From: Synechococcus sp. RS9916 | Lineage (GTDB): Bacteria; Cyanobacteriota; Cyanobacteriia; PCC-6307; Cyanobiaceae | Length of the DNA: 64,000 nt | NCBI RefSeq assembly: GCF_000153825.1 | Contig: NZ_DS022299.1 | Location: forward strand, 523,216 to 587,215 | Reading direction: 5' to 3' | Shown: positions 58,969 to 64,000 of the stretch, piece after piece | How positions within the stretch are numbered: the stretch's first letter is position 1 | How the letters are laid out: each line of letters starts with the position of its first letter | Notes under the pieces: generated by a model | Databases searched by the model: none | What the model saw: only the letters and a program-made list of their open reading frames with translations | Told to the model about the DNA's origin: nothing | Position numbers and translations under genes: made by a program

Positions 58969-59242
58969 CCGTTGAATCTGAGAGTCTCGCTTTTCAACCT
59001 TCAGATCGAGGCCCCTCAGGCTTGGTAATCCTTGGCTCGGATTGGCTGTGCCCTTCGTTCGCGAGAGGGTGATCGTTCTTGATCCAGATCTGAGGATCTG
59101 GCCCCACGAGGCCATCGCATTCATCTCTCAATGTTGCCTTGTCTCCCAGGCGATGGTTGATGCGCTCGGGTGATATGAGCCTTCTGTTCGATAAAGCCCT
59201 CCTGATTTCGAACGTTGCGTTACTGGAATTGGCTTTTGGGCA

Positions 59243-59271
59243 TTGACCTGCGATAAGTACACCGCTATCAA
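59243..59271 (+). promoter_or_regulatory. Sigma-70-type promoter of the cyAbrB gene
   Basis: TTGACC, 17-base spacer, TATCAA, with the -10 box ending 24 bases before the ATG. Position and spacing fit a vegetative promoter. Bases 58969-59242 upstream contain no supportable gene. Confidence 0.5.
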
Positions 59272-59294
59272 CAAAGTAATTCCTCTTTGATTCC

Positions 59295-59660
59295 ATGCTG
59301 ACCGGAAGCGAACTGCTCGCCAAAGTGAAGGATCTTGGCGATGTCTCCAAGACCGATCTTGCGACTGCCTGCGGCTATGTCTCGGAAAAGAAAGATGGTA
59401 GTCAGAGGGTGAATTTCACCGCTTTCTACGAAGCTCTGCTGAACGCCAAGGGCATCGACCTCGGAACGGGCAGTGCTGGTGTTGGTAAGGGGGGACGTAA
59501 ACTCAGCTACATCGCCAAGGTTCAAGGCAACGGCAACCTTCTGATTGGCAAGGCTTACACCGCAATGCTCGATCTCCAGCCTGGTGACGAGTTCGACATC
59601 AAGCTTGGTCGCAAGCAAATCCGGTTGATCCCCGTTGGTGGCAGTGAAGAGGACGAGTGA
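59295..59660 (+). CDS. cyAbrB-type transcription regulator
   Basis: A 121-residue protein of the cyanobacterial AbrB family, whose AbrB-type DNA-binding domain is C-terminal (here about 70-115, LIGKAYTAMLDLQPGDEFDI and RKQIRLIPV). The N-terminal half is helical (LTGSELLAKVKDLGDVSKTD). Members adjust carbon/nitrogen genes. It carries its own promoter and terminator. Confidence 0.85.
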   Translation: MLTGSELLAKVKDLGDVSKTDLATACGYVSEKKDGSQRVNFTAFYEALLNAKGIDLGTGSAGVGKGGRKLSYIAKVQGNGNLLIGKAYTAMLDLQPGDEFDIKLGRKQIRLIPVGGSEEDE

Positions 59661-59683
59661 GTTACACCATTGAATGGAAGGAC

Positions 59684-59716
59684 CAAGGGGTGCCACCGAG
59701 CAGGCGCCCCTTTTTC
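59684..59716 (+). terminator. Terminator of the cyAbrB gene
   Basis: GGGGTGCC, 8-base loop, GGCGCCCC (one G-T pair), then TTTTTC, 27 bases after the stop. Confidence 0.85.
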
Positions 59717-59731
59717 TTGACTCGCCGTGTC

Positions 59732-59962
59732 TCAGTCAGGAGGAGGTGATATGTACGGATTGCCAATGCCCTCTGTCGGAGTCTCATCCATCGCGAAAGG
59801 GACTCCTCCCTTGTTGACGAATTTCCGTCCACTGTCATCCAATGGAATTTTCTTCTCTTCTTTGAAGTGGTGGTCGTTAGGCAAACCGGTTTCGTATCCG
59901 CCGCTGACCTCCTTCAATTCATCAAAGGAGAGCTCTTTGTCCTTGTCTGTCTCTCCAGCCAT
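59732..59962 (-). CDS. Peptide with a double-glycine secretion leader, 76 aa
   Basis: The first 22 residues end LSFDELKEVSGG, a textbook bacteriocin-type leader (LSxxEL...V/ISGG) that C39 peptidase exporters cut after Gly-Gly. The remaining 54 residues are polar, with no cysteine, rich in Glu, Lys, Gly and Pro (YETGLPNDHHFKEEKK, and ending NPYISPPPD). The start is supported by GGAG 8 bases before the ATG. It is thus a candidate secreted peptide, not a lanthipeptide. No C39 exporter or modification gene is in view. It faces the cyAbrB gene tail to tail. Confidence 0.72.
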   Translation of the reverse strand: MAGETDKDKELSFDELKEVSGGYETGLPNDHHFKEEKKIPLDDSGRKFVNKGGVPFAMDETPTEGIGNPYISPPPD

Positions 59963-60042
59963 CGGGAACTCCAGGACTGCCTCAGTTCTAAGCGCTTTTC
60001 ACGTCGGTAGGCCAGAGTCTTCAATCCGTTTCCACGGCTATG

Positions 60043-61002
60043 TCACCTGTTTATAAGCCCCCAGGCTCGTTGCACTTCGATCAGCGGCTGATCAGCAATG
60101 GTGAAGTAATCGATCGCCAATAAATCTTGCCGGCATGCGCGGCCCCTTTTCAGAGCATTAACAACCCTTTCACACATGCCAGGGGCCGAAATCTGATGAG
60201 GATGACTTCCGGTTACAACACTGTCGAATAGACCGCCTTCGTACATCGCCATCACGCCAAGGAACCATAGTGTTGCTCCAGTGACGGAGCTGCTGGCGGC
60301 GCCAAACGCTGCGTTTTCCACCTCGCCGATCATGTCGACGTCATAGTTGCCAAGCACGTGGAGCCAGTCGTGATGTGCGAGAGCCGCATTGGCACCACCG
60401 AGTTCTCCAGGCGTCGTAAAGCCATGGCGTTGATAGTGCTGCCACACCGCTGCGCCAAGCGTGTCGTCCGGGAGTTCCGCTAACGAGCGCCATTGGGCAG
60501 CGAGCTCCGGGTCGGGCTCCATGGTGAAGGTCCAGGATTGTGGGCCATGGGCCTTCAGTAGTTGATCAAAGCCTTTCTGGCGTTGATCCTCTTCTCCCAT
60601 CCAAAACAGACGGTAAAAATCACTTTGCGCTTGTTGCCGCGCTTGTAATGCCACATCGCGCGCCAGCACCAAGGAACGATCGTGAACCTTGAGTTCGCTG
60701 GCCCAGTGCTCCACCGAGGCTTCCAATCGTGAAGGCACCGGATTCAGCATCATCTCCGCCAGCACCATCAGTTCGATCAGTTCCAGGCGCTGCAGTGGAT
60801 CGGGAAAACTCTGTGCAGCCTCTTGAACGTTGATGCCATTGATGGCTTTGAAATCAATGTCAACGCCAATGAGCTCACGAAAAAGTAGCCCTAAGAATCG
60901 GGGCTGGAAGTCGGATCCCCAGGAATCACCAATGCGGCAAGCTCCCACTACAGCGGCCGCTACATCTGGAGCCTGAGTGATGGTGGTGTGGGCAAGAAAC
61001 AT
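60043..61002 (-). CDS. Coq4-motif protein with an extra helical N-terminal part, 319 aa
   Basis: The C-terminal third holds AHHDWLHVLGNYDVDMIGEV, an exact HDxxH-(11 residues)-E motif, the zinc site of Coq4 (ubiquinone biosynthesis). The N-terminal 180 residues are helical (LELIELMVLAEMMLNPV, and ASVEHWASELKVHDRSLVLA) and perhaps TerB-like, but I am not certain. Cyanobacteria make plastoquinone and not ubiquinone, so the role is open. ATG at 61002 with GAGG 9 bases upstream is preferred over a TTG at 61017. Confidence 0.75.
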   Translation of the reverse strand: MFLAHTTITQAPDVAAAVVGACRIGDSWGSDFQPRFLGLLFRELIGVDIDFKAINGINVQEAAQSFPDPLQRLELIELMVLAEMMLNPVPSRLEASVEHWASELKVHDRSLVLARDVALQARQQAQSDFYRLFWMGEEDQRQKGFDQLLKAHGPQSWTFTMEPDPELAAQWRSLAELPDDTLGAAVWQHYQRHGFTTPGELGGANAALAHHDWLHVLGNYDVDMIGEVENAAFGAASSSVTGATLWFLGVMAMYEGGLFDSVVTGSHPHQISAPGMCERVVNALKRGRACRQDLLAIDYFTIADQPLIEVQRAWGLINR

Positions 61003-61017
61003 GGGGTTTGGCCTCAA

Positions 61018-61903
61018 GGGGCAACCTGGGTAGGCCTCGCTGGGGCTTCCTCCTCTTTAGTCACCAAAGCACGAACTATTTCGCTGGTTACTAAAGCAAT
61101 GGATTCGTTGCTGGCAACCGCAGGAGGGGGCAACAAAGCCTTTTTATTTTTCCCTCGGCCCAACATGAAGAACAGGACTACTTCAGGTCTAAACCCTATG
61201 TCGGATCTGATGGCCTAGCTTTATCCCTCCATTCTTTGAAACCTTGGGTGCGCCCTTCGTGGACCTCGTTTCGAATTTGTTGTTGAAGCGGAATAACTTT
61301 GATTGTTTCCCGGGGGGACATTGATGTCACGTCAAAGCGAAACAGGTCTTTCCACTACAAAAAGACGGACCAGTGACAGGATTGAAAACATCTTGGTCGT
61401 AACAGCAAGTGTGGGAGGAATCACGGCTCCTGCTCCCATAGTTGTGAAGCCGCATATCGCCAAGCGATCAAAGTGCTTAGGCCTGCTCCAAAGGTAAGAA
61501 TGACTACCAAAGCTTGAGTTGTCGTCATTGAAAGGTTTTCAAGAGCCACTTTTCTAAGGCAGCGGAGCCCTCTGGCGCTCTTGTTACCAAATCAGGTGAT
61601 TCAGAGCTCCGTTGCCGGCCAAAGTCAGTGGCAGAACCCTTGTGTTATTGATGCCACCATTCCCGGTCCATTGGCTGTAGTCACTTGGCTTGGTATCAGC
61701 AATCACTTGGGTTGTGGCTCCTGCTCGCTTTGGGTTGCTGAGATTTTGCTTCCCTGCACTCTTGGTATCCGAAGACTTGATGCATTTCACATGTTATATC
61801 ATTTTGTTGATCAAGGCGCAGTCTTTTACTGCCTTTTGTTGTGAGCCATGCAGTTACGCTGTTGTGCTATGCAGGCAAGTACCTCATTGGTGGCTAAAAT
61901 GAA
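61018..61903. other. AT-rich intergenic stretch with only weak ORFs
   Basis: No gene can be assigned firmly. A 57-codon plus-strand frame at 61324-61497 (starts MSRQSETGLSTTKRRTSDRI) has a G-run upstream and might be real. A 68-codon minus-strand frame at 61584-61790 lacks a ribosome site. Imperfect direct copies GTCACCAAAGCA and GTTACTAAAGCA lie near 61060-61100. Base composition is poorer in GC than in the flanking housekeeping regions. Confidence 0.35.
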
Positions 61904-62431
61904 TCATTGCTCGATGGGTGAACGCCCGTCAACTTGAACCAGGACGCTTTCGTCCATAAACCTCACATCAAATGATTGATCTTGGTTTTCATACACTTCG
62001 CCTGGCGCTAGTCGAATCAAGTGGCACTGTATTTTGAGTTCAACCATTGCGATGTTGTTTCGATCATTTTGTTTGACAGCAACTTGTGAAATCTTGCCGG
62101 TGGGTAGTTCGCGGGCCACTCTCCACCGAAAAATTGAGGTATTACCTACGTGATCTGCCCATTGGTCAGACCCTTGGGGAGCCCTTGGTATTGGCTCAAT
62201 TGACAATCCGAACTCATCGTCGTCTTGGTAAGTGGATATTCGTAACCATTGATTGTCCACATGTGCAAACAATGAAAGCAGCTGCAGCATTGGCACTGAT
62301 TTGTGGTGCCAGATGAGGGCTTCGGGTGTTGAGGCTTCGTTTAGTGCCATTTCTATGGCTTGCCATTCCTCGACATTGGAATTCAGAAGCTGTTCAAAGT
62401 TAACGCGTTGAAAATGAGTCCATTCAGTCAC
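61904..62431 (-). CDS. Hypothetical protein, 175 aa
   Basis: A soluble protein with alternating strands: an N-terminal helix (FQRVNFEQLLNSNVEEWQAI), then VDNQWLRISTYQDDDEFGLS and VAVKQNDRNNIAMVELKIQC, ending RFMDESVLVQVDGRSP. Rich in Gln, Asp and Asn, unlike neighbours. No family recognised. Stands alone between AT-rich gaps. Confidence 0.7.
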   Translation of the reverse strand: MTEWTHFQRVNFEQLLNSNVEEWQAIEMALNEASTPEALIWHHKSVPMLQLLSLFAHVDNQWLRISTYQDDDEFGLSIEPIPRAPQGSDQWADHVGNTSIFRWRVARELPTGKISQVAVKQNDRNNIAMVELKIQCHLIRLAPGEVYENQDQSFDVRFMDESVLVQVDGRSPIEQ

Positions 62432-62561
62432 GAATCTTGTGCGGTCTACTGGCTCAAGGTTACTCCTTTGTTTTTTGTTGTTGGCTTTGGTAGGTCATAA
62501 GTTACAGATGGGTTGATTCACATGGTTGGAAAGAGCCGTTTTGAATGATTAGCCGGGTTTG

Positions 62562-62723
62562 ATGAAGCATCGATATTTCTCTGTTACTTCTCAGCTTTGT
62601 GGCGACATTCGTGCATTGGCATTGATCTCGTTATTCGCAAGTAGTTCGACATTGGTGAATTCCTTTATCTCTTCGATCTCAAGATCAAGTGTGGGGCGAA
62701 TATTTCATCAAGCTCTTGCGTGA
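62562..62723 (+). CDS. Possible small membrane peptide, 53 aa
   Basis: MKHRYFSVTSQLCGDIRALA, then a hydrophobic Ser/Ala/Leu stretch (LALISLFASSSTLVNSF), ending SSVGRIFHQALA. No clear ribosome site. It is upstream of the Nif11-leader gene in the same direction, but 214 bases away. Weak evidence. Confidence 0.35.
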   Translation: MKHRYFSVTSQLCGDIRALALISLFASSSTLVNSFISSISRSSVGRIFHQALA

Positions 62724-62937
62724 TTTGATTGTTCCCGCAACTCGGTGCCTCTGTGTGGGGGGAGGCTCAGCCGCCAGCGCGTTGGCGAACACCACAGGAA
62801 ACTCTCATCGCACTCTCTCCTTGAGATACAGCTGGCGTGAGGCCTCCAAAGCAATGCTGAATAGGTCCCAGGCAGTGCCAATCCCCATGGTCATGACAAC
62901 ACCTTTGGCAACAGTTGTTCATTTTGCATCTTCGGTG

Positions 62938-63177
62938 ATGTCAGACGAGCAACTCAAAGCTTTTCTTGACAAGGCCCAAGTCGATGCACGCCTTCGGCAG
63001 AAGCTCCAATTAGCGAGCGATGCGGATGCTGTGATCGCACTTGCTGTCGAAGCGGGCTTTGCGACTTCACTTGAACAGCTCAACAGGCCTCATTCAGTCC
63101 GTACGGAGCTTCCAGATGACTTGCTGGAAGGTGTTGCTGCTGGTGTCTCACGCGATCGTTGGCAACCCGGGTTCTAG
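62938..63177 (+). CDS. Nif11-leader peptide precursor with a short core, 79 aa
   Basis: The first roughly 69 residues are a clear Nif11-type leader: MSDEQLKAFLDKAQVDARLR, SDADAVIALAVEAGFATSLE, and PDDLLEGVAAG, where most family members end EGVxGG before the core. The remaining ten residues, VSRDRWQPGF, contain no Cys, Ser-rich or other modification target beyond one Ser, so the core is short and unlike prochlorosins. The frame extends upstream to 62689, but the leader fixes ATG 62938. No LanM or C39 exporter is in the window. In Prochlorococcus and Synechococcus such genes are often orphaned from the enzyme. Confidence 0.85.
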   Translation: MSDEQLKAFLDKAQVDARLRQKLQLASDADAVIALAVEAGFATSLEQLNRPHSVRTELPDDLLEGVAAGVSRDRWQPGF

Positions 63178-63356
63178 CGAGAGAGTGCACGCTAAGAAAC
63201 GGCAGTGGATCCTTTCAGCAATCCCCTTTCTCTAATACCAGGGTTGACTGATGCGCGACTGGTTTGCTTCCTCTTGGCTAAGACAATGGCCTCACTGCTT
63301 CCATTGGGTTGCAGTGCCAAGCAGCTGTGAGATAGACCCATGAATGAAAGGATCCG

Positions 63357-63385
63357 GAGACCGCCCATGCGGGTGGTCTCTTTTA
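63357..63385 (+). terminator. Terminator downstream of the Nif11 gene
   Basis: GAGACCGCCC, loop ATGC, GGGTGGTCTC (one G-T pair), then TTTT. It closes a plus-strand transcript; a 30-codon frame at 63251-63343 (starts MRDWFASSWLRQ) lies just upstream and may or may not be translated. Confidence 0.85.
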
Positions 63386-63441
63386 TTGGAGCCTGTTTGC
63401 CAGTTGCGTAGGGCAGTCGGTCGACATCTTTCTTTCCTTGA

Positions 63442-63540
63442 TTAGGAGTGATTCAGCAACCGCATTAGTTCCCACGCGCCGGCAATGATGGCTCCGTTCA
63501 GCAAAAGGAAGCCAACAACGACTTTGAATTGTTGATCCAT
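63442..63540 (-). CDS. Single-helix membrane peptide, 32 aa
   Basis: MDQQFKVVVGFLLLNGAIIA then GAWELMRLLNHS: one transmembrane helix (about residues 6-24) flanked by polar ends, the size and shape of photosynthetic or stress-related miniproteins. No strong Shine-Dalgarno. Alone between the terminator and the repeat-rich end. Unrecognised. Confidence 0.5.
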   Translation of the reverse strand: MDQQFKVVVGFLLLNGAIIAGAWELMRLLNHS

Positions 63541-63727
63541 GCGGAGATGCTGGCGAACCAGGCAGTCCAGCCGTGAGCTCAAATCTGCTGTGATGTGGAA
63601 GGTCTTACCTCAGGTTCAGGCCATGTGAACCCCCTCTCCGGAGCAAGGTTCTTTGGTCAGCTCGAAAGGTGGACCTTCCTATGACGATGACCATTGCCCC
63701 AGTGATGAGCGTGGGTATAAAGCGCTC

Positions 63728-63804
63728 GGCACAGACAAGAAGACCGCCCCCTAGGGGACGGTCGATGCCTAAGTAATCCCCATCACCCGGCCCTTGTCTG
63801 TGCC
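63728..63804. ncRNA. Candidate structured RNA element (nested inverted repeats)
   Basis: A perfect 12-bp outer inverted repeat, GGCACAGACAAG (63728-63739) and CTTGTCTGTGCC (63793-63804), encloses an inner hairpin, GACCG-C-CCCC-TA-GGGG-A-CGGTC (63742-63763, one mismatch). On the minus strand the inner hairpin is followed by TCTTCTT, so the minus strand is the likelier sense. The 15-base CCCCATCACCCGGCC (63778-63792) inside it is repeated at 63969-63983. Structure is seen; the RNA role is inferred. Confidence 0.5.
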
Positions 63805-63968
63805 ACCAAATGTGGAACATGTCCAAGAGGATACATGCGCCATCAGTTGCGTGGTGTAGGTAAAGATGCTCTTCAGGGTTGAGTGAACTTTTAGACCAAA
63901 GCTGTGACCAAATGTGGTTTAAGTGTGAAGACCCTGCATTTAGTGTTGGCCAGGTGTAGTTTGTGCTC

Positions 63969-64000
63969 CCCCATCACCCGGCCTGCCCTTGAGGCAGGCT
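63969..64000. repeat. Second copy of a 15-base repeat plus a hairpin at the window edge
   Basis: CCCCATCACCCGGCC at 63969-63983 repeats 63778-63792 exactly. It runs into GCCTGCC-CTTGA-GGCAGGC (63981-63999), a perfect 7-bp hairpin that may be the start of a terminator or of a second structured element cut off by the window end. Confidence 0.55.

What the first reader, a model, noticed from the sequence alone, without database searches (positions are those of the whole stretch)
59732..59962. Orphan double-glycine-leader peptide with a cysteine-free 54-residue core
The leader ends LSFDELKEVSGG, a strong secretion/cleavage signal, yet the core has no cysteine and is charged and proline-rich. This is not the usual prochlorosin or class II bacteriocin profile. 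It may be an unmodified secreted peptide, or a signalling or toxin peptide, used with a distant C39 exporter.
Basis: partly seen in the sequence, partly recalled or inferred. Interest (0 to 1): 0.6.

Follow-up and report, generated by a model that had tools for sequence, protein, structure and literature searches.

The report
Small exported cyanobacterial peptide, cysteine-free
A marine Synechococcus carries a small gene for a peptide with a standard export tag and a short conserved hairpin; it is one of many exported peptides this genome encodes, and what the peptide does outside the cell is unknown.

Summary
The 76-residue minus-strand gene at 59732-59962 is real. The GG pattern alone is no better than chance (0.46 expected in shuffled ORFs), but a paralogue in the same genome (56% identity, E 5e-15) and an intact relative in Synechococcus UW105 share both leader and core. 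The start codon is fixed, and the leader has V-4, L-7, L-12 and GG, the residues that dock in C39 export peptidases.

The genome encodes two C39 exporters with catalytic residues in place, far from this gene. The Cys-free core is not unusual here: 9 of 14 short-leader GG peptides sampled in this genome lack Cys, against 2 of 14 Nif11-type (prochlorosin-like) ones.

The 54-residue core is a free linker, one conserved segment (D..GRKFVxxxGVPxAxD) under purifying constraint, and a variable tail. AlphaFold2 predicts a hairpin there (pLDDT about 80, two-row alignment). The core occurs in only four genes in three closely related genomes; one is frameshifted.

The gene lies in a strain-specific 5.2 kb island between ccsA and rpe; in two relatives that junction is about 120-150 bp.

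Best reading: a peptide cleaved and exported by C39, unmodified, working through its hairpin outside the cell, as EbfG proteins do in S. elongatus. A new member of a known kind.

The parts
59732..59962 (-). precursor gene, 76 aa, double-glycine leader peptide
   Evidence: homologues
59897..59962 (-). leader, residues 1-22, MAGETDKDKELSFDELKEVSGG; V-4, L-7, L-12, G-2, G-1
   Evidence: C39 docking residues as in LahT150-ProcA2.8 (PMC6363468); helix 13-19 predicted
59735..59896 (-). predicted exported peptide, residues 23-76, 54 aa, no Cys, 5983.5 Da, pI 4.9
59786..59839 (-). conserved core segment, residues 42-59, DDSGRKFVNKGGVPFAMD; predicted beta-hairpin (strands 46-51 and 54-59)
59969..59972 (-). 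GGAG, likely ribosome-binding site, 6 nt before the ATG
   Evidence: sequence
59685..59712 (+). terminator-like hairpin of the convergent AbrB-like gene, just downstream of the peptide gene
60043..61017 (-). Coq4-like gene directly upstream on the same strand (80 nt gap); the neighbourhood is not conserved elsewhere
58969..64000 (.). strain-specific island between ccsA and rpe (continues to about window position 64190); ccsA to rpe is about 120-150 bp in G019 and G003

Best explanation
The gene makes a 76-residue precursor. The helical end of its leader (L-12, L-7, V-4) docks on the C39 peptidase domain of one of the two NHLM-type peptidase-ABC exporters encoded elsewhere in the genome. The exporter cuts after GG and sends the 54-residue peptide out of the cell. 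The peptide is not made into a lanthipeptide. Its working part is a segment of about 18 residues that folds as a beta-hairpin, held between variable hydrophilic stretches, and it acts outside the cell or at its surface, most likely as a surface, matrix or cell-cell contact factor in the manner of the EbfG proteins. Shown here by computation: the gene, its relatives, the leader anatomy, the exporters and the conserved segment. Inferred: cleavage, export, which exporter, absence of modification, fold, and outside role. The stated confidence is for the exported, unmodified peptide; the surface or matrix role is the weakest step (about 0.3 on its own).
For: Paralogue and UW105 relative keep leader and GG. 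V-4, L-7, L-12 are those seen bound by a C39 domain in the LahT150 structure (PMC6363468), and the same residues are shared by this genome's Nif11 leaders and other short leaders. There are two C39 exporters with HlyD and a second ABC subunit, one of them in a cluster that also holds a LanM and a TolC-like protein; Q, C, H and D of the active site are readable in both. Codon comparison: leader and core segment conserved with synonymous changes, linker free (dN 0.14 leader, 0.79 linker, 0.20 segment against the paralogue). AlphaFold2: helix in leader, hairpin in core. Cys-free short-leader peptides are common here. EbfG precedent for small GG proteins exported by a C39 transporter in a cyanobacterium and acting in biofilm (PMC4997328, PMC9981879).
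Against: No exporter gene lies beside this gene or was seen in the fetched surroundings of its relatives, so the substrate-exporter pairing is by motif only. The AlphaFold2 model rests on two sequences (pTM 0.24). Nothing observed bears directly on biofilm or surface function; EbfG cores show no recorded homology to other cyanobacterial proteins (PMC4997328), so likeness to EbfG is of kind only. One of four copies (G029) is frameshifted at two A-runs, which could mean decay or sequencing error.
Confidence: 0.6

Rival explanations
1. Bacteriocin or microcin: the exported peptide kills or inhibits related cells.
For: The leader resembles the bacteriocin signal (TIGR01847, 15.2 bits against a cut-off of 15.7). 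Narrow strain-specific distribution in an island suits a weapon.
Against: Core is hydrophilic and acidic (GRAVY -1.03, charge about -4). No recognised immunity gene is adjacent: neighbours are AbrB-like and Coq4-like. The core segment is conserved between copies rather than diversified.
Confidence: 0.15
2. Signalling peptide sensed by the same or neighbouring strains.
For: A short conserved segment in a variable carrier is the layout expected of a recognised signal. C39 exporters also carry known quorum-signal peptides (PMC6363468).
Against: No receptor or response regulator was recognised beside the window gene; no regulation data.
Confidence: 0.15
3. Modified peptide (RiPP), for example a substrate of the genome's LanM or of an unseen enzyme acting on the RKF or PFA residues.
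For: A LanM is encoded, and the leader's last 12 residues resemble those of Nif11 leaders.
Against: No Nif11 domain, no Cys in the core, and no Ser, Thr or Cys among the invariant core residues. No modification enzyme was recognised beside the window gene, though distant radical-SAM enzymes were not searched for.
Confidence: 0.12
4. Decaying island gene without present function.
For: Frameshifted copy in G029; very narrow distribution.
Against: Synonymous changes in leader and core segment with low dN; two intact copies in one genome.
Confidence: 0.1

Closest known systems
EbfG1-4 of Synechococcus elongatus PCC 7942 (GG-motif biofilm proteins exported by the C39 transporter PteB)
   Same: Small GG-leader proteins of a cyanobacterium; C39-dependent secretion; no lanthipeptide modification reported in the passages read.
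   Different: EbfG genes form an operon close to pteB; this gene stands alone in an island. No sequence relation was tested or is recorded; biofilm role not tested here.
CCRG-2 family RiPP (NF033456) of picocyanobacteria
   Same: Short leader with an EL(S/T)xDxL..(V/I)xGG end; the same genome holds six peptides above the model's cut-off.
   Different: This leader scores 12.8-13.8 bits, below the cut-off of 24, so it is not a member by that test.
Prochlorosins (Nif11-leader, ProcM-modified peptides)
   Same: Same GG cleavage tail (L-12, L-7, V-4) and probably the same exporter type; same genome.
   Different: No Nif11 leader domain, no Cys, no conserved Ser/Thr in the core.
Class II bacteriocins and microcins
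   Same: Double-glycine leader and C39 export.
   Different: Acidic hydrophilic core, no recognised immunity gene beside it.

Membership tests
C39-exported double-glycine peptide | GG at -2/-1 with hydrophobic residues at -4, -7, -12 | tested here: met
   V-4, L-7, L-12 in the window gene and both intact relatives; reference PMC6363468
C39-exported double-glycine peptide | C39 exporter in the genome | tested here: met
   two matches over the Pfam cut-off; best NCBIfam match NHLM_micro_ABC1 for both, over its cut-off for one
C39-exported double-glycine peptide | leader is cut off and core exported | not testable with these tools
   needs peptidomics
CCRG-2 family RiPP (NF033456) | score over the curated cut-off of 24 bits | tested here: not met
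   12.8 bits, 13.8 bits
Prochlorosin / Nif11-leader peptide | Nif11 leader domain | tested here: not met
   no Pfam or NCBIfam Nif11 match
Prochlorosin / Nif11-leader peptide | Cys with Ser/Thr in the core for lanthionine rings | tested here: not met
   no Cys in the core; no invariant Ser/Thr in the core
Bacteriocin signal TIGR01847 | score over the cut-off of 15.7 bits | tested here: not met
   15.2 bits, just under
EbfG-like biofilm protein | gene beside its C39 transporter | tested here: not met
   C39 exporters lie at 1.47 and 1.84 Mb of the genome, the gene at 0.58 Mb
EbfG-like biofilm protein | needed for biofilm or found in matrix | not testable with these tools
   needs knockout and imaging

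The most novel reading that the evidence does not exclude
The 18-residue hairpin segment is a minimal exported contact module: an autonomous beta-hairpin, carried out by the prochlorosin export route, that imitates hairpins of large surface proteins (look-alikes VNKDGIPFAID in PDB 4lb8 and VDRNGIPWAVD in an HpsA-like protein) and may act together with the outer-membrane barrel proteins that lie beside the paralogue and other GG peptides.
Probability: 0.07. Interest if true: 0.65.

Novelty: new member of a known kind. Interest (0 to 1): 0.32.

Why it matters
Marine picocyanobacteria encode dozens of GG-leader peptides whose functions are unknown, and attention has gone mostly to the Cys-rich prochlorosins. 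The GG peptides sampled in this genome fall into two groups that share one cleavage tail: long Nif11 leaders with Cys-rich cores, and short leaders with Cys-poor cores. A short-leader core with a conserved segment gives a concrete, synthesisable 18- or 54-residue peptide with which to ask what the second group does.

Tried and rejected
Pfam, NCBIfam, PHROGs: no family over its cut-off for the peptide. Phage and IMG/VR searches: nothing. Core segment alone in 399 genomes of the order: only the known copies, the rest E 0.024 or worse and not in GG peptides where looked at. Whole profile in 388 genomes of the class: distant hits share only the leader, except one HpsA-like protein matching the segment at E 0.007, treated as a look-alike. 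PDB look-alikes 4lb8 and GhpA at E 0.17 to 0.005 over 14-24 residues, treated as chance or convergent. Operon with the Coq4-like gene: rejected as a functional unit because its orthologues at 72-73% identity in four genomes have no GG gene within 1.5 kb. First peptide count (Fisher test) included truncated duplicates and one false hit; corrected, with one entry (L086) still moved from short to Nif11 by hand.

Full report
Observation. The ORF at 59732-59962 (minus) reads MAGETDKDKELSFDELKEVSGG-YETGLPNDHHFKEEKKIPLDDSGRKFVNKGGVPFAMDETPTEGIGNPYISPPPD, with an ATG preceded by GGAG at six bases. The open frame is only 12 codons longer upstream and has no other ATG/GTG/TTG. The GG pattern by itself is not significant: one ORF of 592 in the window has it, against 0.46 expected in residue shuffles. 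What makes the gene real is homology.

Relatives. In the same complete genome (2.66 Mb, window = 523216-587215) a paralogue lies at C1:1096349-1096543, E 4.6e-15, 56% identity. A second relative is in G009, which matches Synechococcus sp. UW105. A third, in G029, is broken by two frame changes at A-runs. No other genome of 31 in the genus and none among 400 of the family, 399 of the order with the core segment alone or 388 of the class carries the core; these sets overlap, and other hits share only the leader. Nothing was found in IMG/VR or in phage records.

Anatomy. Aligned copies fall into three parts: a conserved leader (17 of 22 residues identical to the paralogue, dN 0.14, dS 1.06), a free linker (5 of 19, dN 0.79), and a conserved segment (13 of 18, dN 0.20, dS 0.53 with the paralogue; 10 synonymous against 5 nonsynonymous codon changes with UW105). 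Invariant residues of the segment are D, GRKFV, GVP, A, D. AlphaFold2 on the window protein plus UW105 gives a helix at 13-19 and a hairpin of strands 46-51 and 54-59, with block pLDDT about 80 in those parts, but pTM 0.24 and only two sequences. So the hairpin is a prediction. The mature peptide would be 54 residues, 5983.5 Da, pI 4.9, hydrophilic.

Export. [quoted passage not shown] The window leader has exactly V-4, L-7, L-12 and S-11. The sampled short and Nif11 leaders of this genome share L-7 and GG throughout and L-12 in all but one, with a hydrophobic or Ala residue at -4. The genome has two C39 exporters over the Pfam cut-off. One is in a cluster with LanM, a second ABC subunit, HlyD and a TolC-like protein at 1.46-1.47 Mb; the other is in an NHLM-type trio at 1.834-1.840 Mb. 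Catalytic Q, C, H and D motifs are readable in both. A third, long-type protein at 2.135 Mb scores below the cut-off and its C39-like region seems to lack the His motif. Which exporter takes this peptide is inferred, not shown.

Is the profile unusual? No. Among GG peptides in the fetched loci of this genome, 9 of 14 short-leader cores are Cys-free, and 2 of 14 Nif11-leader cores are (with L086 moved by hand to the Nif11 class; the script's own split is 9 of 15 against 2 of 13, Fisher p 0.024). The census is a sample, since the genome was not available as a file. The genome has 36 Nif11 matches over the cut-off and six CCRG-2 matches over the cut-off. The window leader scores below the CCRG-2 cut-off (12.8-13.8 of 24 bits), so it is not filed there.

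Setting. In G019 and G003, ccsA is followed by rpe within about 150 and 120 bp; in this genome 5.2 kb lie between them, at 46-57% GC against about 57-63% before the junction. The island holds the AbrB-like gene, the peptide gene, the Coq4-like gene, a 175-residue unknown and a Nif11-type peptide. The Coq4-like gene is 80 nt upstream on the same strand, so joint transcription is possible, but its orthologues elsewhere have no GG gene near them. No sigma-70-like promoter was found in 59600-60200.

Reading. The best-supported account is an unmodified peptide cut and exported by a C39 ABC exporter, with a hairpin segment as its working part. EbfG1-4 of S. elongatus are the nearest functional precedent: small GG proteins whose efficient secretion depends on a C39 transporter and which are needed for biofilm (PMC4997328, PMC9981879). 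The likeness is of kind, not of sequence. Toxin, signal, modified peptide and decay remain as rivals, none excluded.

Novelty. A new, very narrow core family within a known kind. Interest is modest: the conserved segment makes the function of the short-leader class testable, but the peptide itself is ordinary for this genome.

Noticed in passing
L004:4147-5415 (-) and loci L194-L214: A family of outer-membrane barrel-like proteins (weak PF13505/PF11924) lies within 1.5 kb of GG-leader peptides in 7 of 21 loci from four genomes, against 0 of 26 Coq4-like and 0 of 29 ccsA loci by the same pattern; the pattern missed at least one Nif11 peptide at a ccsA locus (L136), so the contrast is rough.
   Followed up: partly
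window 62944-63177 (+): Nif11-type leader peptide (53.8 bits) with GVAAG in place of GVAGG and a 10-residue Cys-free core VSRDRWQPGF; perhaps degenerate.
   Followed up: no
L008 (G000:C1:2135480-2135812): Third, long-type C39-like ABC protein with a sub-cut-off C39 domain; the active-site His motif is not apparent.
   Followed up: no
L172 (G028, ccsA downstream): At the ccsA junction G028 carries an array of about seven Nif11-leader peptides, so this junction may be a recurrent landing site for GG-peptide genes.
   Followed up: partly
L046 and L012 (G029:C6): The relative in G029 is broken by two frame changes at A-runs; real decay or assembly error not decided.
   Followed up: no
G000:C1 2332761-2336960: An open frame of 10770 residues, probably a giant surface protein.
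   Followed up: no
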